From Notolepis coatsorum (Eukaryota > Chordata > Actinopteri > Aulopiformes > Paralepididae): a stretch of DNA of 64,000 nucleotides. Under the pieces are notes generated by a model, which saw only the letters and a program-made list of their open reading frames with translations, did not search any database and was not told where the DNA came from. The stretch covers positions 95,250,048 to 95,314,047 of the forward strand of contig OZ020599.1 in assembly GCA_963971535.1 (NCBI GenBank), given 5' to 3'. This document shows positions 4,923 through 64,000 of the stretch, one piece after another. The number at the start of each line of letters is the position of its first letter. Positions within the stretch are counted from its first letter, which is position 1. A program made the position numbers and the translations under genes.

Positions 4923-7130
4923 ACATTTAGTCATTTAGCTGATGCTTTTATCCAAAGCAACTTACAAGTTCTGTGCGACAAGACAGCAAGAAGGGTACAA
5001 CTCTATCAGCTGAGTAACAATGTTCATCAAAATGTTGCGTGTTACAGTGTAGGTTAGTTTATTAGGACAAGTGCATGACAGTAAGGTTAGTCAGGGTTAG
5101 ATTTTTTTTGTCCTAACTGGGATGGGTAGTTCATTCCACCATTGTGGGGCAAGGACTGAGAATAGGCGGCTTCTCTTTGATGACCCTCCGGGAGCTTGGA
5201 TAGGAGTAGGTCTGAGGCGGCCAGAAGATGCAGAGCGTAGGGGTCTTGAGGGTGTGTAGTTAGAGACCATTGACCGGAGGTAGGCGGGAGCGGTTCCCTT
5301 TGCCGCACGGTATGCTAGGTCGAGGGCCTTGAAGCGGATACGTGCAGCAATGGGGAGCCAGTGCAGGTCCCTAAGAAGTGGGGTGACATGGGCCGACTTC
5401 GGTAGGTTTGAGATCAGGCGGGCCGCTGCGTTTTGAATGAGTTGAAGAGGCTTGGTGGCAGTGGCCGGGAGGCCAGCTAGCAGTGCGTTGCAGTAGTCGA
5501 GGCGGGAGATGACTGTTGATTGGACGAGGAGTTGGGTGGCTTCTTTTGTCAGGAAGGGGCGTATCCTTCTGACGTTGCTCAGGAGAAATCTGCAGGTTCT
5601 GGTTGTCGCTGCGATGTGAGCAGAGAAGTTCAACTGGTCGTCGAGGACAACACCAAGGTTCTTGGCGGTCGGCGAGGCGGTCACAGCTGCATTCTCGACT
5701 GTGATGGAGAGGTCGGTCAGGGGGGAGGATTTGGCCGGCAGGTGGAGCAATTCTGTTTTGCTTAGGTTCAGTTTGAGGTGGTTGGTCGTCATCCAGACGG
5801 AGATGTCGGACAGACAGGCCGAGATCCGCTCAGAGACGTGGATATCTGAGGGAGGGAAGGAGAGGAAGAGTTGAGTATCATCGGCATAACAATGATATGA
5901 GAAGCCATGAGACATGATAATGTTACCCAGTGATTTAGTGTAGAGGGAGAAGAGAAGGGGTCCTAGGACCGAGCCCTGGGGGACACCCGTCCGGAGGGGG
6001 CGGGTGGCCGACAGAGTCCCTCTCCATGACACTTGGTAGGAGCGGTCGTTGAGGTATGATGTCAGCCATGTCAGCGCAGATCCAGCCACTCCCATTCCTG
6101 CGAGGGCCGCGAGGAGGATCTGATGGTTGACTGTGTCGAAGGCTGCAGATAGATCTAGGAGAATCAGGACAGAGGAGAGGCCTTTCGCTTTTGCTAAGTG
6201 AAGTGCCTCTGTGACCGCAATGAGGGCCATTTCTGTGGAGTGGCCAGTCCGGAAGCCAGACTGATTGGGGTCTAGGAGGTCATTCTGTAAGAGATAAGCA
6301 GTAAGTTGGTTGGATACAGCACGTTCAAGTGTTTTAGAAAGGAAGGAGAGAAGAGAGACAGGACGATAGTTGGCTATGACGGTGGGGTTCAGGGTTTTTT
6401 TTTTTATGAGGGGCGTGACTCTGGCTTGTTTTAGGGAGGTGGGGACCACCCCCGAGTTGAGTGAGGAGTTGATGGTTGCAGTTAGGAATGGGAGGATGTC
6501 CGGTGCTATGGTCTGGAGGAGTGGGGAGGGTAGCTGGTCCAGCTGGCATGTAGTCGGACGGTTCGACGTTACCAGTGTCAGGGTCTCGGCTTCTGTAATG
6601 GGAGAGAAAGATGACAGAGTGAAGGATGAGGTTCTCGATTCAGCGTTTGGAATGGGTGGGGGTTGGGAGAAGGAGCTGCGGATGTTCTCCACTTTTTCCT
6701 CAAAGAAGATTGCAATGTCTTCGGCAGAAAAAGATGAGGAAGGAGGGGGTGGGGGGGAGTGAGGAGGGAGGACATGGTAGCATGCAGTTTGCGAAGATTC
6801 TTGGCAGAGGCCTCGATCCTATGGTGAAAGAAAGAAACTTTGGCATTAGTAATGGTTTTGGAGAATGTTAACAAGAGGTTGTGATATGTGTCGATGTCAG
6901 CAGTGAGGCGTGACTTTCTATACTTCCTCTCAGCTGCTCTCAGGACCTGTCTTTGTTCTCTCACTGCATCCGTCAGCCATGGACTGGGTGGGGAACGGCG
7001 GGCAGGTTTCTCAACGAGGGGACAGAGCTTGTCGAAGGAGGTTGCAAGGGCTGAGAGGAGGGTGGAGGTTGCCATCTCTGTGGGGAGAGCAGAGAAGGTG
7101 TCACTCAAAGTTTCTTGATGTAGGGGAGCC
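4923..7130 (-). mobile_element. L2-clade LINE, 5' truncated, minus strand
   Basis: The 3' end (low coordinates) carries the conserved fish L2 tail, with repeated TTTACATTT units and the segment about CATTTAGCTGATGCTTTTAT. The same tail recurs at 15020, 19326 and 24860 in this window. Upstream on the minus strand lies a long RT frame (5097-6692). Before that is a second, overlapping frame (6578-7108) that reads as the linker between endonuclease and RT. The endonuclease domain itself is missing, so the copy is 5' truncated, as usual for LINEs. One frame shift near 6600-6690 separates the two open frames. Confidence 0.88.
5097..6692 (-). CDS. L2 LINE reverse transcriptase, long open frame
   Basis: A 531-residue open frame with the full set of RT landmarks: NYRPVSLLSFLSKTLER, then QSGFRTGHSTEMAL, palm motif A as DLSAAFDTVNHQIL, GVPQGSVLGPLLFSLY, and the catalytic YADDTQLFL. 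A C-terminal stretch ending in WWNELPIPVR is typical of L2/CR1-group ORF2. The product would copy element RNA at nicked chromosomal targets. The linker frame overlaps out of phase at its start (6578-6692), and no endonuclease is present, so the copy is not autonomous. The open frame over 1.6 kb implies a fairly recent insertion. Confidence 0.85.
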   Translation of the reverse strand: MENIRSSFSQPPPIPNAESRTSSFTLSSFSPITEAETLTLVTSNRPTTCQLDQLPSPLLQTIAPDILPFLTATINSSLNSGVVPTSLKQARVTPLIKKKTLNPTVIANYRPVSLLSFLSKTLERAVSNQLTAYLLQNDLLDPNQSGFRTGHSTEMALIAVTEALHLAKAKGLSSVLILLDLSAAFDTVNHQILLAALAGMGVAGSALTWLTSYLNDRSYQVSWRGTLSATRPLRTGVPQGSVLGPLLFSLYTKSLGNIIMSHGFSYHCYADDTQLFLSFPPSDIHVSERISACLSDISVWMTTNHLKLNLSKTELLHLPAKSSPLTDLSITVENAAVTASPTAKNLGVVLDDQLNFSAHIAATTRTCRFLLSNVRRIRPFLTKEATQLLVQSTVISRLDYCNALLAGLPATATKPLQLIQNAAARLISNLPKSAHVTPLLRDLHWLPIAARIRFKALDLAYRAAKGTAPAYLRSMVSNYTPSRPLRSASSGRLRPTPIQAPGGSSKRSRLFSVLAPQWWNELPIPVRTKKI

Positions 7131-21959: not shown

Positions 21960-23460
21960 TGATTTGATTTTATTTTATTAGGGATCCCCATCTTCCTGGG
22001 GTCCACACAAAAAAAAACACAAAAACAATCACTATTGCAAAAAACAAAATTATTAAAAGTCAGTACACACAATGCATAATGAACCTACTGTAACAATTAA
22101 TATAGCTAAAATTACATTAGTGTAAAACAAAAACAAAAAATTACTTTACAGTGTTAAAAACAATTTAAAAACAATTTAAGATTCTTTTTAAAAGTGAATC
22201 TACTGTAAATGCAGCAGAGGTTCCGAGGCAGGCCATTCCACAGAGTTAATGCTCTAAAAATAAAAGATCTCCCCAGAGCGCTGGTTCTAGGACCTGGCAA
22301 TTCAAGCTGCCCACTACTGGAACCTCTTGTGTAATGCTCGTGCACAGTATTACTAAAAACAAGCTGATTATGTATAAAAACAGGAGTCTTACTGCTCATG
22401 ACCAACTTGAACAGCACAAGTATATTAAAAGACAATCTATTTTCAACGTTAAGCCAAGAGAGGCGGGCATGCATACGGCTCACATTAGACCTTAGTGAGC
22501 AGCCCAGTACCAACCGTGCTGCCCTGTTCTGGACCACCTGGAGCTTCCTGAGGTCACCACTGGCAGCAGATGACCACATCGCAGAGCAATAGTCAAGATG
22601 ACATAAAACTAAACTTTGCACTATCTGACATAAAAGGGGACGGGCAACAAAAGAAGCACATTTCCTGGAAATACCAATTGCTCTTCCCATTTTTAAAACA
22701 ATATAATTAATATGCTGAGACCAAGACAGAGTGCAATCCAGCATCACTCCAAGGAGTTTAGTACTTTCAACTTGTTGAACTTAAATTAAGCTTTGGATTT
22801 GTAGATAACCTGTGCCTTGTTCCCAGCACAATACATTTAGTCTTGAGATATTAAGGACATGTCTATTACATACTACCCAGTCATGCACAACTTTAAGTTC
22901 TCTACTCAAAACTTCATTAAGTACATTGCATGATGGTGCCGCATAATACAATGTTGAATCATCTGCATAAAGAACTGTTGTAGCACATTTGGTAGCCCAA
23001 GATAAGTCATTCGTAAATACAGAGAAGAGCAAAGGTCCTAGGCAACCTCCTTGCGGCACGCCACACTCTAGACCTCTGCTACTGGACAGGCTGCCATTTA
23101 GATACACCTTCTGTGATCTAGAGGACAAATAACTTAGTATCCACTTTAAAGCAGAAGAGTTAAAACCATAACATTTAAGTTTATCAACCAGTAGAGAATG
23201 GTCCAGCACATCAAATGCAGCACTAAAATCTAACAGCACAGCTCCCACCAACATAGAGTTATCTATAGCTTTAAGCCAGTCATCAGTCATCTGTATCAAG
23301 GCAGTAGAAGTAGAGTGACCAGCTCTATAGGCATGTTGAGAATCTGTTGCAAGCTTGTTTGAAACAAAATACTCTTGAATTTGTGAATGCACCAACTTTT
23401 CCATGATTTTGCTCAAGACAGGTAAAATACTTATTATAGGTCTAGAATTTCCCTCATTAA
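21960..23460 (-). pseudogene. Rex1/CR1-group LINE, RT and 3' end, minus strand
   Basis: Two open frames carry RT blocks. The first (23416-22781) has KIMEKLVHSQIQEYF, HAYRAGHSTSTALI, palm motif A as LLDFSAAFDVLDHSLL, CGVPQGGCLGPLLFS and the catalytic VLYADDSTLYY. The second (22747-22154) continues with thumb and C-terminal sequence (ARLVLGCSLRSNV, then LTLWNGLPRN). A frame break at about 22750-22800 separates them. The 3' end near 21960 has ATTAGGGATCCCCATC. 5' truncated; Rex1 is my best guess, with L2/CR1 relatives possible. Confidence 0.8.
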
Positions 23461-23574
23461 AAGCAGCTTTGGTATCCTTATTTAAAGGAAAAACCTTAGC
23501 CTCTTAGCCTCGAGTCCAGGATTGGGTTTAATCCATGTCTATCACAATCTAATAAAAACAGGGGATGCCGTATA

Positions 23575-30650: not shown

Positions 30651-31450
30651 TTGTCTCTGCATTTTTACTTTTTAGCATAATGTAAGTCAGCGCATCCTAG
30701 CTATTTGAGGTCATCAGGTCAGTGGCAGGCAGCCACATCTGTAGCAGCGATTCATGTTAAGGAATTTCAGAAAACGACGTCCCAAATTGTCAATGGAAAT
30801 AAGTGAACACAGAGGGGACTTTTGGGGGTAATCTCGTTGGATCTCGAGTGTTGTAGACTAGACAGGACCCAGGTGATCCAATCATGTCACTGTGTCATAT
30901 ATTCTTCATTTGCTAATATAAATATTTTTTTCATTGAATCGCCTCAAAGTGACGTTAACGGAACGTAATGATGTCACTTCATTAACGAGTTGCTTCACAG
31001 GTGTGTTCACCTCCGGCAGAAATGTTTCCTCCTACAATTATGTGATAAACGCACTGTCAAATAATTATTTTTTGTCTACAGATCATAGCTTTTAGACCTG
31101 AGTGGAATGAAGGTTGAGGTGGCGTGAATGAGTTTGAGGGAGAGTGGCTTAGGAGAACAGGGCACTAAGGTCAAAGAGAATGCATAAAGAATGCATAAAG
31201 TTAAAAAAAAAATAACAATAATAATAATGTTCAGCCTGTGATATGCTCTGCTCCTTTTCAATTGTGCACTGCAGTTTCACTCTTTCACTCAAGTTTACAT
31301 CTTTGTATGGATTTCAAAGAAGTCCGCCCCAAACGCGTGTGTGTGACTGAGGATGATAGACGAGACAGGCTGGGAGAAGGTCTTGGCACGGTTTGGCCTC
31401 GTGTAGCCCAAGCATCGGCCCGGCTTGGCTCGGCCCGGTTCGGCCCGGAC

Positions 31451-43976
<12,526 letters not shown>

Positions 43977-44184
43977 CTGAGGAGAGACGGGGGGGGGGGG
44001 GGGGGGTAAAGGGACCGTTGAATAGGGAGAGGAGTGGTAGAGAAAGAGCACTTGGAGAGAGGGATTCATAGTCCAGTGGACTCGGGGCAAAAAGGAGCAG
44101 AGATAATGGGTGAAACTGAGAATTCACCTGGTTTCATTTATATGTATTTCCTACATATCTTAAAAGGTGCTGTAAGTGTTTTTT

Positions 44185-49459: not shown

Positions 49460-49745
49460 ATTGATTGATTGATTGAAAACTTTATTAACAGATTGCAGAA
49501 TGGGTACAATACAGTACAGCTCAATACACACAATTGTTAAGGGAATGCAGACCAGAGAAAGACTTTCGTCTTGTTTACATCAGGGTCCCCCATTTTCAAT
49601 TCATCAGGTTAGGGTTAGGCCCGTCTCACTGAGGTTAAGGTTGGATTTATTAACAACGGAAAGTCTTTCTCTGGTCTGCATCTGTATTGTACCCATTCTG
49701 CAATATGTTAATAAAGTTTTCAATCAATCAATCAATCAATCAATC
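49460..49745. repeat. Two LINE family X 3' ends, inverted to each other
   Basis: The minus copy begins (TTGA)n then AAAACTTTATTAACAGATTG (49460-49605). A plus copy (about 49655-49745) ends AATAAAGTTTTCAATCAATC. Confidence 0.75.
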
Positions 49746-49829
49746 AAGCAATCAATCAATGGTGCGTTGTTTTCTGCTGTTTGAGCGAGAGCTCTTGAGA
49801 CAAGTTGTGCGCCCTCCCCTAATTAGAGG

Positions 49830-49874
49830 CACCTGTTATTCATTGATTGGTCGATAATTACACTCCTATAAAAT
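49830..49874 (+). promoter_or_regulatory. Putative core promoter of the ZP-N/proline-rich gene
   Basis: E-box CACCTG (49830-49835), an inverted CCAAT box ATTGG (about 49846-49850) and a TATA box TATAAAAT (49867-49874), with the start codon 72 nt after the TATA box. A TATA box plus an E-box is the layout of vertebrate zona pellucida genes that respond to the oocyte factor FIGLA. The link to FIGLA is inference. Confidence 0.5.
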
Positions 49875-49945
49875 TACCACCAACATGGATAGCAAGGAGA
49901 TTCGACTTTTGCGGCACACTTACGGCTGTGGTGGCGGGTGTCAAC

Positions 49946-50252
49946 ATGGCGTGGAAAGAGAAATGGGTGTATACAATGTTGCTATATTTAGGTCTTTTTG
50001 TCATTTTAAGACCACTTTGTCGTGGCGCAGAACTGACGAGGATAAAAGTGTCAAAGCCGTCCGTTGCCTTGAAGCTCAAATTTGGAGAAAACTCGACATT
50101 AATTAATGGTCAAGGTAACGGAACCAGTTCAAGTTATGTGCATCATGGAAAGCTCATACTTGGACGCAATTCTCGGCAAGGTGTATTCCTCAAAGAAAGG
50201 ACGTCTGCAAACAATTTATTGAATATGAATGCAGATTACCAATCGGACGTGG
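49946..50252 (+). CDS. ZP-N/proline-rich gene exon 1: signal peptide
   Basis: 102 codons plus one base. The signal peptide is followed by a mature N-terminus with two N-glycosylation sequons (NST and NGT). The donor G|GTATGT (50253) is strong. An upstream in-frame TTG at 49847 is not a credible start in an animal gene. Confidence 0.8.
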
Positions 50253-53200
50253 GTATGTATAACGTTGAACAAAGTAAACTAGCCTACACAATCATTATTC
50301 TATTTACTATTGCCATAATATAATGTAAAATATTATATTAATTGAGTCTTTGTTTGCTATAGTTACCGACTATGTATCCCATATAGCAACATTTATTTCT
50401 TCATATCACAGCCAGGCAAATTAACTTAACTTTTCATTTTACTTACTCAAAAGCATTTTATATGACCTAAACACAAAATCCGGGCTACTTATTTGTCAAA
50501 CACTAATCTGAAGTTGTTGAAATGGTCCGTCTTCTCTCAATTTCAATGGAGTCTGTTTACTGGGTGCATGCCATAATGATCAAATGCACTTAAATTAATA
50601 ACATGTCAACCCAGTAAACGGAAATACTGAAATTGAGAAGATCGACCATTCCAACAACTTCGGGGTAAGTTGAAATAAATTGAAATAAATGTATAGATGT
50701 AGCGGTACTGTCTATCTGTATGTCATGTATGTCATATATGTTATGATGAATTGAAAATGGGGGACCCTGATGTAAACAAGACGAAAGCCTTTCTCTGGTC
50801 TGCATCCCCTTAACAATTGTATGTATTGAGCTGTACTGTACTGTACCCATTCTGCAATCTGTTAATAAACTTTTCAATCAATCAATCAATCAATCAAGTG
50901 TTTGACAAATTATGTTTAGGTAAAATAAAATGCTTCAGAGTAAATGCAATTGCATGATACAGTACATTTTGCTGAGTAAATTTAACTCAAACTGAGTACA
51001 TCTTGAGTAACATTTTACTCACTTGGGCTCAAATGGACTCAGTTTGAGTAAAATTTACTCTGTGAAATGTACTGTGTTGCACGGTAGTTCTAAAGTAAAT
51101 GTCAGTCTATGTTACTTTGCCTGGCTATGATGTTTGATTGAACATTTTATTAACAGATTGCAGAATGGGTATACAGTACGGCTCAATACACACTTAAGGG
51201 GATGCAGACCAGAGATACTTTACATCAGGGTCCCCCATTTTCAATTCATAACATTTATGACATGCACGCAGGGGTGTAAAGTACTTGAGTAATTGTACTT
51301 TGTTACAATACTGAAGTACTGTTTTGGGGGATTTGTACTTTACTCAAGTATTATAGCTTTGTACTTGTACTTTTACTCAATTACATTTCAGAGAAAGAAA
51401 ACTACATACTTTTTACTCATTTAAAATGCAGACCTACAAATCTTGCAGGTCCAATTTTAATTAGTATATTTGTTTCTTTGGTCGAATTAACGTTATTAAT
51501 CCTGCAGCTGCGCTTTATTTAAAAACAGCCAATCAAATCTTTATCAATGGAAAATTAACCCGCCCATTGGTCCTTGTGGAAGACTAGAAAGCGGGGCTCT
51601 TTAATTAAACACCTGCTATCAGAAGAATAGACGGGTCAGAAAAAAAGTTTTAGTACTTGAGTAAAAGTCAAGTTTCTACTTTTAAATGTACTTAAGTGTT
51701 TTTAGCCAGATACTCTGAATTTTGCTTGAGTACGATTTTGAGACGGTACCCATACTTTCACTTAAGTATAATTTCTGGGTACTTTTTACACCCCTGCATA
51801 CATGATATACAGTATTACATCCAGACATTTATGACATACAAGATATACTAATTGAAATATACAGTACTGTTTATTCAGACCGTTAAGAGAATATATACAT
51901 TTGAGGGGGAAGAAACTGTACATTGGGGGGGGGGGGGGGGGGGCGTTTGGACATTACAGGGGCTAGTTTCGAATTGCAGCCTCCCGTAGGTGCTCTTTGA
52001 GAGCGGTTTTGAAGGTGGATAGGGATTCACATTATTTTACGGCTGTGGGTAGGGCGTACCACATTGTTGCATAATTGCGAAACGTGTTTGAGCCAAATCT
52101 GGGTTGAACATGATTTGTGGAACTCCCTCTGGTGTCGTGGTATCTACTTACCTTTGGGAAGTGTTTCGAAGCAATGTGAAGCAAGCATAAGTGTAGCGTA
52201 CATACAGCAGAGAACCAACAAAGTGTTTGTAATGTCTGAAGGTTGGGAGATGCCTAAGGCCAGGCCGGACACACACAGACACACTGAGACCAGTCCAGCA
52301 GTTGAGAAACTGTTGCAAATGGAACCAACGGTGGAATGTACTGGACACTCCATGAAGCTGAAAATCCATGATGCAGAGTCTGTTCCTGGATCTCTGTTCT
52401 TTGTGGATAGGGGTAAGTGTCAATTCACTCATGGATCTTTTGTAACTCAAGTAGGCCTACTTATAGAAATGATAGGCCCATCAGTGGTAGCCTATGGGTT
52501 ACCAGTAAATGTCTTCGCAATTGACAGCACTAACATTTGGCTAAATTGATCTTGCAGGAAGTCTCCTGTCTCCTCTGCCTCTGTCCAAATTGCCTCCAAG
52601 CTGTGGCTATACCATGAGGTCAACGTTGAAGGAGTTAGTCTTGGTTGCACCTTATGATGGCTGCTTTGTCACGCAAGAGGTGGGATATTTAATTGGTGAA
52701 GTGTGTTGTGGGAGGGGATGGTAAAACAGTTGACCCATGATGCAATCATTTTACTGGAATAACTTTCTGTCTCTTGCTTCAGGAGGAAAACTATGTTCTT
52801 CCTTTGCGTTGGTGTGGGTTACAAGTGAGGATGTCATGCCCTGTTATGAAGCCATCCTCACCAAACCCTCCCATGGTCACCTGCCACTCCGGGGGTATGG
52901 TGGTGAAATTGGAATGGGCCGTCTCCGTCGAGGACATTAAAATTAACCGTAAGCACAGCCATTCTCAAATGTAACTTTTAGTATCTCTGGATATTAAAGG
53001 GGGATGTCACCCATTTTAAGAAGTCACATTATTCCTGTACCCAGGACAGTTGAGTCAATATTTGTCTACATGCACTACTTTCTCCTGAAGCTGGAAATGG
53101 GAGATCCCCTAAAATTTGACATCACCTGAATGCAATATCTGGGGCAGCTCCATTGACTGTGAATGGGGCGCTGATGTTGCATGCCCATACGTTCATGTTT

Positions 53201-56200
53201 TCAGATTATGATGCATCCCCTGACTTAGGAAATGGACTTCTGTTGCTCTTTTGCAGTGAGCGGCCAGTGGGAGCCATTGATGACTGTCTCGTCCAAATGT
53301 GGCTTCAGTGTGGTTGTTCATCCAGAGGGTGTGGTTTTATCTGCTCGCTATGCACCCTGTGTGGAAATGAAGGTAAAGCACACTTGCATTGGCAAAAGTT
53401 GTTCTGCGCCATCCTTATGCTTGTGTTGTGCGGAAGAAATGTGCAATATGCTATTTTTGTGGACCCAGTTTTTGTACTACGTTCAAATGTTTCATAGTAT
53501 ACCTTTTTAAAAGAGACACTGTAATTTTATTATTCTTTCCTATGTAAAGTATAATCTAATCCATTGAAGAATGTATTTCCCACATTCACCAGCTGTGCTA
53601 CTACTGTATACTTAATGCTAAACTTGCCTTACATCCAGGAAGTCAGTTTTCAAAATGGCTCAGAGATGCTGCTGCCTTGACTGCGTTATTTTTTTTCGTA
53701 GCCGCATTTTGCAGAGACACTCTCTGATTGGCCACTGACTGACGCTCTTTGATTGGCCACTGACATGTGCGCCCAATCGCGTGACGAGCTGTGTCTTTGC
53801 CCATTTCCGGGTCTAACAGCCTGCAAACTACCTAACGCCTAGTTTATCACTGGTTAAGCTTAGGCGACTCTTTCGAAGTTGGTTACGGTTAGAGTTTGGT
53901 ATCGGGGCTGGTGTTCTATCGCCCTGCTCTAAGACAAACTCTAACCTTAACCAACTTCGAAAGAGTGCCTAAGCTTAACCGGTGTAGAAACGGGCGTCAC
54001 ACGATTGGGCGCACATGTCACATGAAGTGGCCAATCAGAGAGCGTCTCCGCAAAATGCGGCTACGAAAAAAATAAATAGCGCGCCTTGACTAACATAATC
54101 CATTGCACAAGATGTGCATCACCTTTATTCCTATAGCAACAAATTTGAAGATTCCCAGTGGTACAGTATGTACTGCTAGCGCTACACTTTGCTTGCTTCA
54201 TATCACAGCTGGGCAAATTAACACGCTGCACAACTTTGGGGTTAAGTGTTTGACAAATAAGTGGCCCAGATTTAATGTTTTGGTAATCTAAAATGCTTCA
54301 GAGTAGGTAAAACTAAATTACATGACATACCGTCTCCTGGGAGATCTAAAGTTAATTTCAGTCTGTTCATCTGCCCGGCTGTGATATGAAGGCAAGCCGT
54401 AGTGGTACATATACAATATACATGGAAGCCCACAAACATGCAATGATTTCTTCATATTAAAGTGTAGCAGAATATAAATGCTTCCGATAAGATCACAACT
54501 GCAATGTTTGTTAAAATATCGTTCAAGAGAATTGTTTACAATTGTCTTGTGAGGACCCAAGGAAGACTTTCAGTCATTAAATTGGACGCTAATAATAATA
54601 ATAAATCAAATTTATATAGTGCCTTTCATAGAACCCAAGGTCTCTTTACAATCGGGACAAAAAATAGGGCAAGGAAAGTAGGGGGGGAGGGGGAAGAGGG
54701 GATGAGGGAAAGTAGGGGATAATGGACCTAATTTAATCTAAAACTAACTGATGGGGAAAGCCTTGGTGAAGAGGTGTGTTTTTAGAGCGGATTTGAAGGT
54801 GTCCAGGGTTGGGGCGTTGCGGATTTCGGGGGGGAGAGAGTTCCAGAGGGTAGGGGACGCCACGCTGAAGGCTCTGTCCCCAAAAGTCCGTAACCTGGTG
54901 CGAGGGATTGAGAGGAGACCTAGATCAGAGGATCGTAGGTTCCGGGATGGAGTGTACTGGTGGAGGAGATCAGACGGGTACCGGGGGGCGAGGGCATGGA
55001 GGGATTTGTAGGTGAGGAGCAGGAGTTTGAAGGTGATGCGGAACCTGACTGGAAGCCAGTGGAGATGGATGAGGGTGGGGGTGATGTGCTGCCAGGGCTT
55101 GGTGTGAGTGAGAACCCTGGCAGCTGAGTTCTGGACATACTGGAGCCTGTCCAGGGCTTTGCTGGGTACCCCGAACAGGACTCCATTACAGTAGTCCAAC
55201 CGGGAGGTGACAAATGAGTGGATCAGGGTCTCCGCCACAGAGTCTGAGAGTGAGGGTCGGAGACGGGAGATGTTCCTGAGGTGGTAGAAGGCAGACTTGG
55301 TGACAGATTTGATGTGGGAGTGAAATGAAAGTGTGGAGTCAAGGGTGACGCCCAGGTTACGGACTTCGAGAGACTGGGAGATGGAACAGCCGTCAACGTG
55401 GAGGAGGAGATCTCCAACCTTCCCGAGCAGTGCCTTGGGGGCCACAACCATGAGCTCTGTCTTTTTGCTGTTTAGTTTAAGTAATTTGGTTGCCATCCAG
55501 GTTTTTATAGAGTGGAGGCAGTTGACTACAGACTGTGGGGGGAGCTGGGAGGATGGTGAGGTGCTGATGTAGAGCTGAGTATCATCAGCATAACAGTGGA
55601 AGTTGAGTCCGTGGTGACGTATAATCTGACCGAGGGGGAGCATGTAAATGGTGAATAGTAATGGGGATCCTAATAAAACAATGATGCTGATCAAGTCAAC
55701 AGTACGTCCCTGTGACCCCTGTTATTTTTTTGGTAAACTACTGGATCCAATAACTTGCTGTATGCAAGGTAAATGTGGCATATAACTGACATTCATTGTT
55801 TGATTTACACTAGTTGTAGGTAATGCATGCCAACGGTAAAGCAAATGAGAATTACACTAGTGTCTTTCTCTTTTTAATTGAGTAATTATTTGAATATTTA
55901 ACTGTTTTCCATTTAACCCTCTGAAACATTTCTATTTCAGGATGGGATGTTCACCATTGAGCTGACTGGAGAAGGGGAAATTCAAGTTTCTTGTCCATTA
56001 CAGCTGGTCCCTGACCTTGATGACCCACTTCATCCTAAACCCACCCAAAGCCCTACCAAGCAAATTGAAAAAGTGGTGTACCCTCATTATGTTCCCTTTA
56101 CCCTTGCTCCTCACCAACCCCAACAACCAGAGCTCAAGCCAGAGAGTGCATTTGGGACCAAGCCTACACCTGCTGTACAACACCCTTTCAACCCATTCTA

Positions 56201-59200
56201 TCCTCTATTCCCCCCAGAGAATCGTTTACCTGGTATACATCCTCCAGCTCCAGGGGACAGAGAAGGGCAACCAGTCTATCCTCGACCATCTAGGCCAGAT
56301 GCATCTCATGTTGAGAAGCCTACATATAACTCTGTCTTGCCTCCAGTTACCCAAGCTCCTAAGGGCCAAGTACACCAACCATTCTACCAGTACCCTTTCT
56401 ATCCTTATCCATTCTACACACCAGATGAGCCCAAAATGCCTAGAATACCCATCTCTGGCACACAGCTTCCAGCTACTGAAGCTCCTAGGGGCCAGGCACA
56501 TTACCCTCCCTATCCCAACTGGCCTCACAAACCAGAGCCTGTACCTAACCAACCTCAAAAGCCTTTCAACCCATTCTATCCTCTATTCCCCCCAGAGAAT
56601 CCTTTACCTGGTATACATGAAACTGGCCCTCAGAAACATGAACCACCTACAAAGACTCATCCAAATGCCAAAGGACAACCTTTCAACCCATTCTATCCTC
56701 TATTCCCCCCAGAGAATCCTTTGCCTGGTATACATGAAACTGGCCCTCACAAACCTGAACCACCTACAAAGACTCATCCAAATGCCAAAGGACAACCTTT
56801 CAACCCATTCTATCCTCTATTCCCCCCAGAGAATCCTTTACCTGGTATACATGAAACTGGCCCTCACAAACCAGAGCCTGTACCTAACCAACCTCAAAGG
56901 CCAGCCTCTGTCACACAGCTTCCAGCTACTGGTCAGGCACATTACCCTTACCCCCCCTATCCCAACTGGCCTCACAAACCAGAGCCTGTACCTAACCAAA
57001 CTCAAAAGCCTTTCAACCCATTCTATCCTCTATTCCCCCCAGAGAATCCTTTACCTGGTATACATGAAACTGGCCCTCAGAAACATGAACCACCTACAAA
57101 GACTCATCCAAATGCCAAAGGACAACCTTTCAACCCATTCTATCCTCTATTCCCCCCAGAGAATCCTTTGCCTGGTATACTTCCTCCAGCTCCAGGGGAC
57201 CCCAACACATTCTATCCTCGACCATCTAGGCCAGATGCATCTGCATCTCCTGTTGAGAAGCCTACATATACCTCTGTCTTGCCTCCAGTTACCCAAGCTC
57301 CTAAGGGCCAAGTACACCAACCATTCTACCAGTACCCGTTCTATCCTTATCCATTCTACACACCAGATGAGGTCAAAATGCCTAGAATACCGGTGACTGG
57401 CACACAGCTTCCAGCTACTGAAGCTCCTAGGGGCCAGGCACATTACCCTCCCTATCCCAACTGGCCTCACAAACCAGAGCCTGTACCAAACCAACCTCAA
57501 AAGCCTTTCAACCCATTCTATCCTCTATTCCCCCCAGAGAACCCTTTACCTGGTATACATGAAACTGGCCCTCAGAAACCTGAACCACCTACAAAGACTC
57601 ATCCAAATGCCAAAGGACAACCTTTCAACCCATTCTATCCTCTATTCCCCCCAGAGAATCCTTTACCTGGTATACATGAAACTGGCCCTCAGAAACCTGA
57701 ACCACCTACAAAGACTCATCCAAATGCCAAAGGACAACCTTTCAACCCATTCTATCCTCTATTCCCCCCAGAGAATCCTTTACCTGGTATACATGAAACT
57801 GGCCCTCGCAAACCAGAGCCTGTACCTAACCAACCTCAAAGGCCAGCCTCTGTCACACAACCTCCAGCTACTGAAGTGTCAAAGGGTCAAGTGCCCTTTT
57901 ACCCATATCCCTTCTCCCCTCAACAACCCCAGATTCCAAAGCCTGTAACAAACCCTCTTAACCCATCTGCAACAAAGCCAGGACCAACCACACAACCTCC
58001 AGCTACCGAAGCTCCATCTCATGCAGTGCATCCATATAATTTGCCTCGGAACCCTGCAGCAACCCTTCCTGACCCTGTTCCGGCCGTACATTGCTCCCAG
58101 TTTTGTCCATCTGGAGTTTCTAACTGCTGCCCATCCATTTCATTCCATCACCATCATATTGTCCCTGCAGGAATTAAGGGTGATGGCATGATTCCAATGT
58201 ACCCTGGATTTCCATTCCTTCCTGCATCGGAGTACTCCATATCTGGTTATGGAAAAGGGCTTCATCCAAATTCCAAAGGACAACCTTTCAACCCATTCTA
58301 TCCTCCATTCCCCCCAGAGAATCCTTTACCTGGTATACATGAAACTGGCCCTCGCAAACCAGAGCCTGTACCCAACCAACCTCAAAGGCCAGCCTCTGGC
58401 ACACAACTTCCAGCTACTGGTCAGGCACATTACCCTTATCCCCCCTATCCCAACTGGCCTCACAAACCAGAGCCTGTACCTAACCAACCTCAAAAGCCTT
58501 TCAACCCATTCTATCCTCTATTCCCCCAAGAGAATCCTTTACCTGGTATACATGAAACTGGCCCTCAGAAACCTGAACCACCTACAAAGCCTCAACCTTT
58601 CAACCCATTCTATCCTCTATTTCCCCCAGATAATCCTTTACCTGGTATACATGAAACTGGCCCTCACAAACCTGAGCCTGTACCTAACCAACCTCAAAGA
58701 CCAGCCTCTGTCACACAACCTCCAGCTACTGAAGTGCCTAAGGGTCAAGTGCCCTTTTACCCATATCCCAACTGGCCTCACAAACCAGAGCCTGTACCTA
58801 ACCAACCTCAAAAGCCTTTCAACCCATTCTATCCTCCATTCCCCCCAGAGAATCCTTTACCTGGTATACATGAAACTGGCCCTCGCAAACCAGAGCCTGT
58901 ACCCAACCAACCTCAAAGGCCAGCCTCTGGCACACAACTTCCAGCTACTGGTCAGGCACATTACCCTTATCCCCCCTATCCCAACTGGCCTCACAAACCA
59001 GAGCCTGTACCTAACCAACCTCAAAAGCCTTTCAACCCATTATATCCTCTATTCCCCCAAGAGAATCCTTTACCTGGTATACATGAAACTGGCCCTCAGA
59101 AACCTGAACCACCTACAAAGCCTCAACCTTTCAACCCATTCTATCCTCTATTTCCCCCAGAGAATCCTTTACCTGGTATACATGAAACTGGCCCTCACAA

Positions 59201-62200
59201 ACCTGAGCCTGTACCTAACCAACCTCAAAGACCAGCCTCTGTCACACAACCTCCAGCTACTGAAGTGCCTAAGGGTCAAGTGCCCTTTTACCCATATCCC
59301 AACTGGCCTCACAAACCAGAGCCTGTACCTAACCAACCTCAAAAGCCTTTCAACCCATTCTATCCTCTATTCCCCCAAGAGAATCCTTTACCTGGTATAC
59401 ATGAAACTGGCCCTCAGAAACCTGAACCACCTACAAAGCCTCAACCTTTCAACCCATTCTATCCTCTATTCCCCCCAGAGAACCCTTTACCTGGTATACA
59501 TGAAACTGGCCGTCAGAAACATGAACCACCTACAAAGACTCATCCAAATGCCAAAGGACAACCTTTCAACCCATTCTATCCTCTATTCCCCCCAGATAAT
59601 CCTTTGCCTGGTATACTTCCTCCAGCTCCAGGGGACCCCAACACATTCTATCCTCGACCATCTAGGCCAGATGCATCTCATGTTGAGAAGCCTACATATA
59701 CCTCTGTCTTGCCTCCAGTTACCCAAGCTCCTAAGGGCCAAGTACACCAACCATTCTACCAGTACCCTTTCTATCCTTATCCATTCTACACACCAGATGA
59801 GGTCAAAATGCCTAGAATACTGGTGACTGGCACACAGCTTCCAGCTACTGAAGCTCCTAAGGGCCAGGCACATTACCCTCCCTATCCCAACTGGCCTCAC
59901 AAACCAGAGCCTGTACCTAACCAACCTCAAAAGCCTTTCAACCCATTCTATCCTCTATTCCCCCAAGAGAATCCTTTACCTGGTATACATGAAACTGGCC
60001 CTCAGAAACCTGAACCACCTACAAAGCCTCAACCTTTCAACCCATTCTATCCTCTATTTCCCCCAGAGAATCCTTTACCTGGTATACATGAAACTGGCCC
60101 TCACAAACCTGAGCCTGTACCAAACCAACCTCAAAAGCCTTTCAACCCATTCTATCCTCTATTCCCCCCAGAGAATCCTTTACCTGGTATACATGAAACT
60201 GGCCCTCAGAAACCTGAACCACCTACAAAGACTCATCCAAATGCCAAAGGACAACCTTTCAACCCATTCTATCCTCTATTCCCCCCAGAGAATCCTTTAC
60301 CTGGTATACATGAAACTGGCCCTCACAAACCAGAGCCTGTACCCAACCAACCTCAAAGGCCAGCCTCTGGCACACAGCTTCCAGCTACTGGTCAGGCACA
60401 TTACCCTTACCCCCCCTATCCCAACTGGCCTCACAAACCAGAGCCTGTACCTAACCAACCTCAAAAGCCTTTCAACCCATTCTATCCTCTATTCCCCCCA
60501 GATAATCCTTTACCTGGTATACATGAAACTGGCCCTCAGAAACCTGAACCACCTACAAAGACTCATCCAAATGCCAAAGGACAACCTTTCAACCCATTCT
60601 ATCCTCTATTCCCCCCAGAGAATCCTTTACCTGGTATACATGCTCCCTCATCTATCTCGGATCCTCAACAATCTGAAGCAACCAAAGCACTTCCTCAACC
60701 AACTGAAGCAAGTACCACTTCAGAAGAGGGAACCGCTCCACCTGATTCCCAAAAGGGTTTTGGTGGGTACTGGAGTCACACTACATCTCCCTCACTTCCA
60801 TTTGGAAGCCAACCTGAAATGCAGCCATATTTCCAACCAGGTAGCTACCCTATTGCACCCCCTGCAAGTGACCCCAACAATCCAATGCATCCTTTTTTGT
60901 TTTACAATTTGCAATATCTCAAGTGGGCATATGAACAGCTGCCCAACAAAACCTCAAAACCTCAGGCTCCAGTGAGTGACCCAATGCTGCCCCATTATCA
61001 AGTCTCTGATTTTCAGCCCCTGATGCCACATGGCCAGGCATCCTCTGAACCTCCCATGCAGCCTTACTTCATGCCATATGTTCCACAACATCCAAAAGAC
61101 CCAAGGCAAAATGTACAACCGCCAGCCATGAACCCACAGTCTCTTGCCAAAAGGCTCAGTGAACCTGAACACCCAGTACATCAATATGAAGGCAAATTAT
61201 TTAATCCTCAATTGGTCCCTTATCACATACTCCGGGACCACATGCTTCAGGACTCTCACGTGCCTCCTTATAGCAAGCCACCAGGCAATATAGCTGACCA
61301 ACCTGTCAAACCCCAGCCACCTGTTGGTGACTCAAAGAAGCTCTCAAAAAACAAAAATGACTCTCCAATGAACCAATACCATCAGCCAAACGGTTATGTA
61401 TTGCTTCAACATGGCCCGCCGCTTAGCGAACCCAACAGGTCCCCTGAATATCTGTTGCCTGCCACAGACTCCAATGACTCTTCTGGACCTCTGCGTTCAA
61501 TGCCTGTTTATGACCCAAATATGTTCCTGGCCCTTGAACCTCCATGGCATGGCAGTGGTAAGCCCCAGAATCTCCAGGAACCACAAGGAAAACCCCAACC
61601 ACTTGAACATCTGGGCATGGGAACGTATGGTGATTTACCAGACGATGGTGCCTCTATTACAACTGAAGGTTATGGTTTGCCATCGTATTACCATGCTCCC
61701 TCTAGTCCTCATCACCTCTCCATGCCACAGAAGCCTTTCAGTCTGCCCCATACATCTTTAATGCCTGAATTCCCACAGTCGCTGAAGCCCGTCATGCAGT
61801 CGGGCTCTAGGTATAGGACTCCACCCCCTTATTCTGGCCTGCCATCAAAAGGACAAGACTCTGCAATTGATGACCAACCAGAGGGTAAGCACAGTATGTG
61901 GACAAACCTAAACTGATTTTTAAATGACAACTTTCAACTGATCTAACAGTTTGCCTTTTGCAGGGTACATGTACCAACCCATCCAGAGACACGGTGGACA
62001 AGACTCTGCAATTGATGACCAACCAGAGGGTAAGCACAGTATGTGGACAAACCTAAACTGATTTTTTAAATGACAACTTTCAACTGATCTAACAGTTTGC
62101 CTTTTGCAGGGTACATGTACCAACCCATCCAGAGACACGGTGGACAAGACTCTGCAATTGATGACCAACCAGAGGGTAAGCACAGTATGTGGACAAACCT

Positions 62201-62314
62201 AAACAGATTTTTTAAATGACAACTTTCAACTGATCTAACAGTTTGCCTTTTGCAGGTTACATGTACCAACCCATCCAGAGACACGGTGGTCATCGGAAGC
62301 TAAATGGATCTTGA
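49946..62314 (+). CDS. Secreted ZP-N-like protein with giant proline-rich repeat domain, unnamed
   Basis: Nine exons: 49946-50252, 52242-52412, 52558-52679, 52783-52948, 53257-53372, 55941-61884, 61964-62029, 62110-62175, 62256-62314. All have GT-AG borders and the sum is 7,017 nt (2,338 residues plus stop), with no frame break. The ATG is in good context (CAACATGG). Residues 1-27 form a signal peptide (VYTMLLYLGLFVILRPLC). Exons 2-4 and 4-6 encode two tandem domains with Cys spacing like ZP-N modules of egg-coat proteins (VEC, CGYT, YDGCFVTQE, SCP; then VTC, KCGF, APC, VSCP). The rest is a low-complexity Pro/Tyr/Phe/Asn repeat region. No ZP-C, furin site or transmembrane anchor was seen. An egg-envelope or other extracellular-matrix role is inferred. 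Exon 1-2 joining is the least certain. An AATAAA lies at 62335. Confidence 0.85.
50690..50895 (+). repeat. LINE family X 3' UTR in intron 1
   Basis: Conserved UTR end followed by TTTTCAATCAATCAATC. Confidence 0.75.
51110..52160 (-). repeat. LINE family X 3' end, minus strand, in intron 1
   Basis: The inverted UTR (51110-51260 and 51800-51950) and ORF C-terminal sequence (about 52160-51960) match the copy at 36770. A hAT-like MITE interrupts it, and a G-run sits at about 51927-51943. Confidence 0.75.
51269..51796. mobile_element. 528-bp hAT-like MITE inside the LINE X UTR
   Basis: The termini are inverted CAGGGGTGTAAAGTACTTGA and TACTTTTTACACCCCTG. Flanking 8-mers CATGCACG (51261) and CATACATG (51797) match at six positions, and both differences fit CpG/TpG decay. 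The type is widespread in fishes. Confidence 0.85.
52242..52412 (+). CDS. ZP-N/proline-rich gene exon 2
   Basis: Encodes WEMPKARPDTHRH, then the domain start EPTVECTGHSMKLKIHD and SLFFVDRG. The acceptor GTCTGAAG was chosen because it fits the phase of exon 1; an alternative AG lies at about 52207-52210. The donor is GTAAGT. A LINE relic ends about 80 nt upstream. Confidence 0.7.
52558..52679 (+). CDS. ZP-N/proline-rich gene exon 3
   Basis: Encodes SLLSPLPLSKLPPSCGYTM and VLVAPYDGCFVTQE, the middle of the first ZP-N-like domain. Acceptor CTTGCAG, donor GTGGGA, phase 1 in and 0 out. Confidence 0.85.
52783..52948 (+). CDS. ZP-N/proline-rich gene exon 4
   Basis: Encodes EENYVLPLRWCGLQVRMSCP (end of domain 1) and MVTCHSGGMVVKLEWAVSVE (start of domain 2). 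Good polypyrimidine tract, acceptor CTTCAG, donor GTAAGC. Confidence 0.88.
53257..53372 (+). CDS. ZP-N/proline-rich gene exon 5
   Basis: Encodes SGQWEPLMTVSSKCGFSVVV and SARYAPCVEMK, the middle of domain 2. Acceptor CTTTTGCAG, donor GTAAAG, phase 1 in and 0 out. Confidence 0.88.
53685..54078. mobile_element. Foldback transposon (family F), copy 2
   Basis: Inverted halves start TTTTTTTTCGTAGCCGCATT and share CTCTGATTGGCCACTGAC, GGTTAAGCTTAGGC and CTCTTTCGAAGTTGGTTA with copy 1 at 34697. It lies in intron 5. Confidence 0.88.
54590..55694 (-). pseudogene. L2-clade LINE, 5' truncated, in intron 5
   Basis: A 316-residue minus-strand frame (55694-54744) starts just before the catalytic FHCYADDTQLYIS and runs through VRNLGVTLDSTLSFHSHIK, LDYCNGVLFGVPSKA and LTHTKPWQHITPTLIHLHWL to FSVASPTLWNSLPPEIRNA. 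The 3' end has AATTTATATAGTGCCTTTCA and (AAT)n. The upstream RT half and the endonuclease are absent, so it is non-functional. Confidence 0.9.
55941..61884 (+). CDS. ZP-N/proline-rich gene exon 6: 5.9 kb repeat exon
   Basis: 1,981 codons in one open frame. It begins with DGMFTIELTGEGEIQVSCPL, which closes domain 2, then turns into 24 copies of PFNPFYPLFPPENPLPG, each followed by one of three linkers: IHETGPQKPEPPTKTHPNAK; HKPEPVPNQPQ plus a PYPNWPHKPEPV block; or ILPPAPGD leading to a longer block with QPFYQYPFYPYPFYTPDE. A Cys/His island interrupts the array at about 58080-58160. The last 420 codons are non-repetitive, rich in Pro, Ser and Gln, and end SAIDDQPEG. Confidence 0.93.
61964..62029 (+). 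CDS. ZP-N/proline-rich gene exon 7
   Basis: 66 nt, phase 1 at both ends. Encodes YMYQPIQRHGGQDSAIDDQP. First of two identical mini-exons. Confidence 0.85.
62110..62175 (+). CDS. ZP-N/proline-rich gene exon 8
   Basis: 66 nt with the same coding sequence as exon 7, 146 bp downstream. A tandem duplicate. Confidence 0.85.
62256..62314 (+). CDS. ZP-N/proline-rich gene exon 9 with stop
   Basis: Starts like exons 7 and 8 (YMYQPIQRHGG), then diverges to HRKLNGS and a TGA stop. The AATAAA at 62335-62340 gives a very short 3' UTR, as in many egg-coat genes. Confidence 0.85.
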
Positions 62315-62340
62315 CACTTTCTTTATATTTTGAGAATAAA

Positions 62341-62870
62341 ATGATCGAAATGTACTTAACTGTGGCCTGTTTTTTTTTTTTTACCCTTGTGTTTTGGTAA
62401 AAGTGAGTTAAACTCATCCGTTTCTGGAAGGAATGAGGGTTGGAGCAGAGTAGTATTGGAACATTAACAAAGGTACAGTGTCATAGAAGTGTCATGACAA
62501 ATTCTCAGTCAAAGTACGAGAAGCTGGCAAGTGGATCCAACTGTTCACTTCAAACCCAAAAGTCTTATCTAACAAACGCATTGGGGAAATGCTGTTGCAT
62601 TGAGTAACTTGTAATGTATCGCAGCTTGAGGTATAAATTAGTTTTAAAGATGTTATAAATGTATAGCGATCTCCAAGAGGCTGGTTGACTCCTCTCTAAT
62701 ATGTGCTTATTACAGGCGGGTGTGGCAAGGGTGTCTTGTATTGTTAGGTGTGGCAAGGGTGTCATTGGTGTATATAATTGACCACATCTGCAGTTGTACA
62801 GCCCTGGCCTTTTAATTTTTTGCTATATACACGGGTCCATTCCAAATTGAGGTGATAAAGGATCCTATAA
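62341..62870. other. Downstream flank, no gene seen
   Basis: AT-rich sequence after the poly(A) signal, with a T-run and a partial 17-bp duplication (GTGTGGCAAGGGTGTC twice, 62710-62765). Confidence 0.5.
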
Positions 62871-62873
62871 TTC

Positions 62874-63995
62874 TTGATTATACAAGGTCACCTTCTCTCT
62901 GAACGCCTCAATTTAATCAACTTATATGGACCAAATAATAACTTTTATAATTTATTTCTAAAAATCTCAACACTACCAGGCAAATGTATTATCGCTGGGG
63001 ACTTTAACTGCACCCTCAACCCAAAGGATGATAGATCTTTTAGAGGGGCGGCTAGGTGGTGTAGTGGGCAAGGCACTCGCCACCAGTGTGGAGACGCTAG
63101 GATTCGCGTGTTCGAATCCAGCTCTCCACATTGTTTTCAGTTTAGCTGGTCGTCCGCAGTAATACACATTGGCCGTATTACGGGGAGGGAAAACTGAAGG
63201 GTGGGGATCGAACGTTGTGAACAAGCGACTCCTACAGGTCGGTTGGTGCGCCTGCGCAGTAGAATCAGGAAGTGTCGGGGGCAGCGTGAGCCTCCCACAC
63301 GTTACTCCTCGACACTGAGAGATCGAGCTGCGCAGGTGAAAAGATGCGACTGCTGTTACCTCAAGTACCGGAGGGGACTTGTGCTATGTATGACTTAGTC
63401 CACATTGCAGCCGGCTTGTGGGAGGCAAGAAACAACGTTCGTGACAGGGGAGGGTTGAATTGGATGATACGAAATTGGGATGGGAGAAAATATAGAAAAA
63501 TGGGAGAACAAGTGGATCAAAAAAAAAGATAGATCTTTTAGAGTGGATAACACCCACACAAGATGCAGGAAAACATTACACTATTTTATGAAAGAGAATC
63601 CATCAAAGGGAGAATGTTCCTGCTACTCGAGTACATACAAAAGGTTACTCCATCAGCAGAACTATTATCTAACGTAGAGGATGTCAACACAACAGCATAG
63701 TCATATCAGACCACGCAGCTGTGTATGTGGAACCAAAGCTGATGCGCAAATCCCATAAATGGAGATTTCAAACAAAATTGAAAGATTTAACATTTTTGGG
63801 AGAACAAATTTATATATACTTCAAAATTAATACGACTCGAACGTCTGCCACAATTAGATGGGAAGCCTTCAAGGCTAGAGGTCAAATTATAAGCTATACA
63901 AGTAGAATGACAAGAGAGAGAATGGACATCTGGAATCCAAAATCTAAATGTTTGAGAACGAACGGTTTCAGAAAGGACAGAACGAACATGTAATT
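62874..63995 (+). pseudogene. L1-clade ORF2 endonuclease-region relic, split by a SINE
   Basis: Before the SINE the translation has LNLINLYGPN and KCIIAGDFNCTLNPKDDRS, the endonuclease catalytic block. After it come THTRCRKTLHYFMKE, SSTYKRLLHQQN and, from about 63705, an ISDHAAVYVEPK segment followed by KWRFQTKLK and ARGQIISYTSRMTRERMD. Frame shifts and stops show decay. The window ends inside it. Confidence 0.8.
63046..63527 (+). repeat. Young 482-bp tRNA-headed SINE (family A), copy 2
   Basis: Flanked by perfect 16-bp duplications GATAGATCTTTTAGAG (63030-63045 and 63528-63543). It starts GGGCGGCTAGGTGGTGTAGT, has the B-box TGTTCGAATCCAG and ends in an A-run. A 65-residue accidental frame in its tail is nearly identical to the one in copy 1, showing how little the copies have diverged. 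Confidence 0.93.
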
Positions 63996-64000
63996 TCAAA

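What the first reader, a model, noticed from the sequence alone, without database searches (positions are those of the whole stretch)
49946..62314. Unnamed secreted gene that joins two ZP-N-like domains to a giant proline-rich repeat domain
Seen: nine exons with consensus splice sites sum to an exact open frame of 2,338 codons, with a signal peptide, two Cys-patterned domains, a 1,981-codon repeat exon and a close poly(A) signal. Known: fish egg-coat proteins (choriogenins, ZP1/ZPB) often carry Pro/Gln-rich repeats before a ZP module, and ZP-N domains can occur without ZP-C. Inference: here the order is reversed (ZP-N first, repeats after) and there is no ZP-C, so this would be a different architecture. 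It might cross-link, thicken or glue an egg envelope or another matrix.
Basis: partly seen in the sequence, partly recalled or inferred. Interest (0 to 1): 0.88.

Follow-up and report, generated by a model that had tools for sequence, protein, structure and literature searches.

The report
Fish egg-coat relative lacking polymer module
This is a real, unnamed gene found in many teleost fishes that resembles the front half of an egg-coat protein (two ZP-N domains and a long proline-rich tail) but has no part for building egg-coat filaments, so it may be an accessory linker that surveys of fish egg-coat genes would miss.

Summary
Nine exons at 49946-62314 splice to 2,338 codons plus stop; orthologues confirm the exon 1/2 junction. 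Both Cys domains look like ZP-N: Pfam ZP1/ZP4 (domain 1) and, below cut-off, ZP2 (domain 2) models, and AlphaFold models of two orthologues whose best PDB matches are ZP2 ZP-N domains. Three searches gave 133 proteins; all named sources are teleosts and only two list ZP-module domains. The tail evolves fast, yet a Cys/His motif (73 of 85) and a C-terminal YVLLQHGPPG motif persist. A second intact copy lies on another contig (dN/dS 0.15).

Those two proteins (Umbra, Merluccius) carry the same N-terminal half followed by more ZP-N domains, a trefoil and the module's ZP-N. The window gene is best read as a module-less paralogue of a ZP1/ZP4-type protein. "Reversed order" fails: ZP-N before Pro-rich repeats is also the bird ZP1 order. 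A structural paper states that fish lack ZP1-N1 domains; these proteins suggest otherwise. An egg-envelope role (docking on ZP filaments, cross-linkable tail) is likeliest but untested. Ten searches of open-access papers found no description of this gene.

The parts
49830..49835 (+). E-box CACCTG upstream of the TATA box
   Evidence: a match only, no evidence of function
49867..49873 (+). TATA box (TATAAAA), 79 bp before the ATG
49946..50252 (+). exon 1: start codon, signal peptide (by eye), linker with HGKLILGRN and NADYQSD
   Evidence: linker positions conserved in orthologues
52242..52412 (+). exon 2: rest of linker, start of ZP-N domain 1
   Evidence: junction supported by orthologues
52558..52679 (+). 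exon 3: middle of ZP-N domain 1
52783..52948 (+). exon 4: end of ZP-N domain 1, start of ZP-N domain 2
53257..53372 (+). exon 5: middle of ZP-N domain 2
55941..61884 (+). exon 6: end of ZP-N domain 2 (to 55997) and nearly all of the Pro-rich tail
52319..52842 (+). ZP-N domain 1 (residues 129-220, over exons 2-4); Pfam PF22821, E 6.9e-8
52867..55997 (+). ZP-N domain 2 (residues 229-313, over exons 4-6); PF23738 below its cut-off; ZP2 ZP-N fold in orthologue models
56190..60638 (+). span of the 24 core repeats NPFYPxFPxxNPLPGI
58092..58169 (+). conserved Cys/His motif CSQFCPSGVSNCCPSISFHHHHIVPA (residue 1012 on)
   Evidence: motif in 73 of 85 sequences
61395..61421 (+). conserved C-terminal motif YVLLQHGPP (residues 2113-2121)
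61964..62029 (+). exon 7, a copy of a 22-aa unit shared with exons 8 and 9 (146-bp tandem array 61851-62289)
62110..62175 (+). exon 8, tandem copy of exon 7
62256..62314 (+). exon 9: last coding exon, stop at 62312-62314
62335..62340 (+). poly(A) signal AATAAA
49623..64000 (.). segment duplicated on another contig (G000:C30); the match runs on about 1.8 kb past the window's end

Best explanation
Shown here: a protein family of many teleosts made of a signal-like start, a linker, two free ZP-N domains and a long tail, rich in Pro, Gln, Tyr, Phe and Lys and modelled without structure, that holds two short conserved motifs. It matches, domain for domain, the N-terminal half of a larger fish ZP1/ZP4-type protein and lacks the trefoil and ZP module. 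Inferred: it is an accessory component of the egg envelope. It cannot build filaments itself; the ZP-N pair docks on ZP filaments or on ZP-N domains of other subunits, and the tail acts as a long flexible spacer tied into the matrix through Gln/Lys isopeptide bonds (as in choriogenin repeats at hardening), through Tyr, or through the Cys/His motif. Tail length drifts; the ZP-N pair and the two motifs are kept.
For: Gene model; 84 homologous teleost proteins at 40-74% identity; PF22821 in 13 of 13 and PF23738 in 12 of 13 members scanned at E <= 1; ZP2 ZP-N domains are the best PDB matches of two orthologue models; chicken ZP1 ZP-N1 is the top sequence-profile match in the PDB, though only at E 0.072, and aligns with TM 0.60 on the target. 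HMMs of orthologue domains 1 and 2 hit domains 1 and 2 of the full ZP relatives at 97-105 and 42-46 bits, against 2.6 or less for the module's ZP-N. Tail: Pro 26.6, Gln 7.5, Tyr 5.1, Lys 5.0%. Conserved motifs. dN/dS 0.15 between the two copies, on 12 differences. Published context: the authors of PMC9154058 knew of no non-reproductive protein with duplicated ZP-N domains (passages); ZP1-N1 cross-links chicken filaments and its P/Q region may act as a spring (PMC6626044); fish Pro-Gln-Xaa repeats are transglutaminase-linked at hardening (PMC10140178, passages).
Against: No expression or proteomic evidence places it in an egg coat. The Cys that cross-links chicken ZP1 lies three residues before C2; that place is Pro in 102 of 102 sequences matched by the pattern (of 132 tried), so the known disulphide cross-link does not apply; the extra Cys of the window's domain 1 is in 16 of the 102. 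No full oestrogen-response element within 2 kb upstream, only two half-sites. Domain 2 stays below Pfam's cut-off in the window protein. The medaka egg-coat inventory in PMC10140178 lists three chg and eight ovary zp genes, and this gene is not named there (passages only).
Confidence: 0.6

Rival explanations
1. A fertilisation protein: the ZP-N pair faces sperm or the micropyle, as ZP-N domains of ZP2 and mollusc VERL do, and the tail anchors it in the coat.
For: Closest folds are ZP2 ZP-N domains; ZP-N domains of ZP2 and VERL are cited as regulating sperm binding (PMC6626044).
Against: The ZP-N pair is fairly well conserved (54-74% identity between the window protein and the percomorph proteins) and dN/dS between the two copies is 0.15, not the rapid change expected of a sperm-facing domain; fish sperm enter by the micropyle (PMC6626044).
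Confidence: 0.15
2. A matrix protein of another tissue (skin, inner ear, liver plasma, hatching gland) that reuses free ZP-N domains.
For: No tissue evidence was obtained; automatic names such as adhesive plaque matrix protein-like and extensin-like probably reflect only composition.
Against: Authors of PMC9154058 knew of no non-reproductive protein with duplicated ZP-N domains; its closest full-length relatives are ZP1/ZP4-type.
Confidence: 0.17
3. A soluble regulator that caps or delays filament assembly, binding ZP-N edges while unable to polymerise.
For: Has ZP-N domains and no module found.
Against: A tail of 325 to 2,025 aa is not needed for a cap; free ZP-N domains are not known to me as caps (recalled).
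Confidence: 0.06
4. A mis-predicted or decaying fragment of a full ZP gene.
For: A full-length relative exists; repeats can keep frames open by chance.
Against: Orthologues without a listed module from osteoglossiforms to percomorphs, conserved C-terminal motif, second intact copy, dN/dS 0.15, no tblastn hit to a trefoil or ZP module in the window or the 30 kb beyond it.
Confidence: 0.02

Closest known systems
P0126 (Umbra pygmaea, 1,323 aa) and P0127 (Merluccius polli, 952 aa, annotated ZP4): ZP1/ZP4-type proteins
   Same: ZP-N 1 and 2 in the same order (97-105 and 42-46 bits), then Pro-rich repeats; P0126 also matches along the signal peptide and linker (26% over 353 aa to the window protein) with similar GR-L and VYGP stretches (by eye)
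   Different: They continue with further ZP-N-like domains (two in P0126, one in P0127, partly judged by eye), a trefoil (PF00088) and the module's ZP-N (PF23344); the window family stops. ZP-C was not recognised in either gene model: P0126 looks garbled there and P0127 ends
Bird ZP1
   Same: ZP-N1 first, P/Q-rich repeats after it (PMC6626044); domain 1 matches the ZP1/ZP4 Pfam model
   Different: One free ZP-N, then trefoil and ZP module; cross-linking Cys66, with no counterpart here
ZP2 N-terminal region (ZP-N1N2N3)
   Different: ZP2 has a ZP module and no such Pro-rich tail (recalled); identity 12-19% in the structural alignments
Choriogenin H/Hm (fish ZP1/ZPB)
   Same: Secreted, Pro- and Gln-rich repeats
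   Different: Pro-Gln-Xaa repeats precede a ZP domain (PMC10140178); the N-terminal ZP-N is said to be missing from fish ZP1 homologues (PMC6626044)

Membership tests
Free ZP-N domain | Ig-like ZP-N fold | tested here: met
Free ZP-N domain | Four Cys (C1-C4) per domain | tested here: met
   six of the eight Cys columns invariant and two nearly invariant in 60 sequences; window Cys 135, 175, 195, 219 and 234, 270, 290, 312
Free ZP-N domain | Sequence-profile match above Pfam cut-off | tested here: inconclusive
   Domain 1 33.3 bits, cut-off 28: met; domain 2 21 bits, cut-off 27: below. In domain 1 the cod (P0067), cyprinid and Arapaima proteins (P0119, P0120, P0121, P0124) also fall below
ZP1/ZP4 subunit | Trefoil domain | tested here: not met
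   No PF00088 in the first 420 residues or the exon-6 reading or in 5 long orthologues; no tblastn hit with P0126's C-terminal part in the window or 30 kb beyond (no positive control for sensitivity)
ZP1/ZP4 subunit | ZP module (ZP-N + ZP-C) | tested here: not met
ZP1 subunit | Cross-linking Cys three residues before C2 | tested here: not met
   Pro in 102 of 102 sequences matched by the pattern, of 132 tried; position by spacing, not by structure
Choriogenin | Pro-Gln-Xaa repeats before a ZP module | tested here: not met
   No ZP module; repeats are of another kind
Egg-coat component | Protein present in egg envelope; oocyte or liver expression | not testable with these tools
   No expression or proteomic data available

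The most novel reading that the evidence does not exclude
Fish did not lose the ZP1-type cross-linker domain: they carry it partly on a separate, module-less protein that cross-links the envelope in trans, with ZP-N docking and a drifting, enzymatically linkable tail in place of the disulphide cross-link of birds and mammals. A division of labour between filament builders and a detached linker would be a new mode of egg-coat assembly.
Probability: 0.35. Interest if true: 0.82.

Novelty: new variant of a known kind. Interest (0 to 1): 0.66.

Why it matters
Inventories of fish egg-coat genes go by the ZP domain (for example PMC12155184, which identified 25 genes, listing, all sharing it, passage), so a family without the module would escape them; its members carry uninformative names. 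[quoted passage not shown] this family and the two full-length relatives suggest that they are. It gives a testable gene in medaka, tilapia and cyprinids for asking what free ZP-N domains do without a polymerisation module and how fish envelopes harden.

Tried and rejected
Rejected: reversed order as the novelty (bird ZP1 and P0126/P0127 have the same order). Rejected: a disulphide cross-link at the place of chicken ZP1's. Considered: fission of one ZP1 gene into two neighbours; not supported, since tblastn found no trefoil or ZP module in the window or the 30 kb beyond (sensitivity not controlled) and in Umbra and in Merluccius the short and full forms sit on different contigs (P0076/P0126, P0096/P0127; lengths). 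Considered: that P0126 and P0127 are fused predictions of two adjacent genes; not excluded, though two distant species show the same layout. Considered: the second copy (C30) as an allele; flanks differ on both sides, so an inter-chromosomal duplication is likelier, but an assembly effect is not excluded. Results that did not help: coding versus intron divergence between copies is not significant (12/2384 against 27/3775, p 0.33); the single-sequence PDB search had 0 matches; the viral structure library, Rfam (0 matches) and tRNA scan (0); paper searches by LOC number and by spurious names gave 0, 0, 0 and 3 unrelated papers. The promoter reading is weak. The profile searches scored only the 7,995 candidates sharing most words, so no claim is made about gar, sharks or tetrapods.
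Full report
OBSERVATION. The nine-exon model is exact: 2,338 codons plus stop with gt/ag at every border. A TATA box lies 79 bp before the ATG and AATAAA starts 21 bp after the stop. Exon 6 is 5,944 nt; the tail is 26.6% Pro, 7.5% Gln, 5.1% Tyr, 5.1% Phe, 5.0% Lys, with 24 core repeats. Exons 7-9 come from a 146-bp tandem array. The signal peptide is by eye; both orthologue models put a helix at residues 8-23.

FAMILY. Three protein searches gave 133 proteins: 84, then 33 new, then 16 new. Every hit with a named source is, as I know the names, a teleost; some are unnamed environmental fragments. They reach from osteoglossiforms (Paramormyrops, Arapaima, Scleropages) through clupeiforms and cyprinids to percomorphs. 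Names are mostly spurious (piccolo-like, titin-like, extensin-like). In the first search all 84 list PF22821 or nothing as precomputed domain; among the later 49, two (P0126, P0127) list trefoil and ZP-N, and P0099 lists profilin. Many entries are partial, so missing domains in single entries prove little. The searches are word-based and length-limited; absence from gar, sharks or tetrapods is not shown. Two short motifs are kept inside the drifting tail: C-x2-4-C ... CC ... FHxH (typically CPQFCPSGFSNCCPQIAFHQHLHH) in 73 of 85 sequences, and sEPksYVLLqHGPPGrep in an alignment of 69 tails chosen for having the first motif (a simple pattern for the second found it in 39 of 85).

THE FULL-LENGTH RELATIVES. 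The last search found P0126 and P0127. Both carry the family's two ZP-N domains and Pro-rich repeats. P0126 then has two further ZP-N-like domains (the first by eye; the last a full-length PF22821 match), a trefoil and the module's ZP-N; P0127 has one further ZP-N-like domain (by eye), a trefoil and part of the module's ZP-N. ZP-C was not recognised: P0126 looks garbled there and P0127 stops. HMMs of the family's domains pick out the corresponding domains: domain 1 at 104.9 and 97.5 bits (next best 18.3), domain 2 at 46.4 and 41.7 (next best 31.0, a domain 1), the module's ZP-N at 2.6 and -0.5. In a tree of domains 1+2 (32 sequences; 30 module-less, 2 full; rooted by me on P0126) the module-less sequences part from the full ones (100), osteoglossiforms split first (99), and the window sequence is sister to percomorphs plus gadiforms (97-99); clupeiform, salmonid and cyprinid order is unresolved (48-49). 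Umbra and Merluccius each have both forms, on different contigs. The simplest reading is an old duplication followed by loss of everything after the repeats. That the two full forms are fused predictions is not excluded.

SECOND COPY. The own genome (3.42 Gb, unnamed) holds the gene twice. About 16 kb (window 49623 to 1.8 kb past its end) recurs on C30 between unrelated flanks; NOL4-family exons that lie upstream here were not found in the 48.9 kb upstream there. The copy is intact: 2,110 aa, 18 core repeats, 13 more residues in exon 2, one exon-7 unit fewer. Outside the repeats 8 synonymous and 4 non-synonymous differences give dN/dS 0.15, Fisher p 0.0013, on few sites; coding against intron divergence is not significant (0.50% against 0.72%, p 0.33). 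The retroelement fragment in intron 5 is missing from the copy.

FUNCTION. Shown: two ZP-N-like domains, a tail modelled as disordered, conserved motifs, no module found. Inferred: egg envelope. The inference rests on the statement that its authors knew of no non-reproductive protein with duplicated ZP-N domains (PMC9154058, passages), on relationship to a ZP1/ZP4-type protein, and on the analogy with P/Q-rich regions that may act as a spring or are transglutaminase substrates (PMC6626044; PMC10140178). The chicken ZP1 disulphide is unlikely to be the mechanism. I give 0.6 to an envelope accessory or linker.

NOVELTY. Ten paper searches (open-access PMC only, listings cut at 20 of 34 and 15 of 19) returned no description of this gene that I could see. 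Six papers were read in passages, one of them also in one section; the rest were seen as listings. [quoted passage not shown] PMC6262864 reports ZP2 missing from most Neopterygii except gar, which its authors lay to genome gaps. The kind (proteins with free ZP-N domains) is known; the variant (found widely in teleosts, module-less, repeat-tailed) appears new.

Noticed in passing
window 58092-58169: Conserved Cys/His motif (C-x3-C-x6-CC followed by a His cluster) inside the repeat tail, in 73 of 85 sequences; could bind metal or form disulphides. The window copy reads FHHHH where the C30 copy reads FHQHHHH.
   Followed up: partly
window 49623-64000 and G000:C30 about 41303.6-41317.1 kb (minus): Recent duplication of about 16 kb on another contig that carries this gene, with a different repeat number in each copy.
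   Followed up: yes
window 54594-55658: About 1.07 kb retroelement insertion (reverse transcriptase fragment, PF00078 E 1.4e-12, open frame 54744-55721 minus) in intron 5, absent from the C30 copy.
   Followed up: partly
window about 31200-44000, minus strand: Exons of a NOL4-family gene (PF23079, E 9.6e-36, at 35104-35268; the other pieces assigned by eye) upstream of the finding.
   Followed up: partly
window 61851-62289: 146-bp tandem array that multiplies a whole 66-nt coding exon with its intron, three copies here and two in the C30 copy: exon duplication in progress.
   Followed up: partly
proteins P0126 and P0127: Fish ZP1/ZP4-type proteins with at least three ZP-N-like domains before the module and Pro-rich repeats; they sit badly with the printed statement that fish lack ZP1-N1 domains and deserve their own study.
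   Followed up: partly
window 5097-6818 and 22154-23503, minus strand: Long reverse-transcriptase-like open frames of non-LTR retrotransposons (by eye from the ORF list).
   Followed up: no
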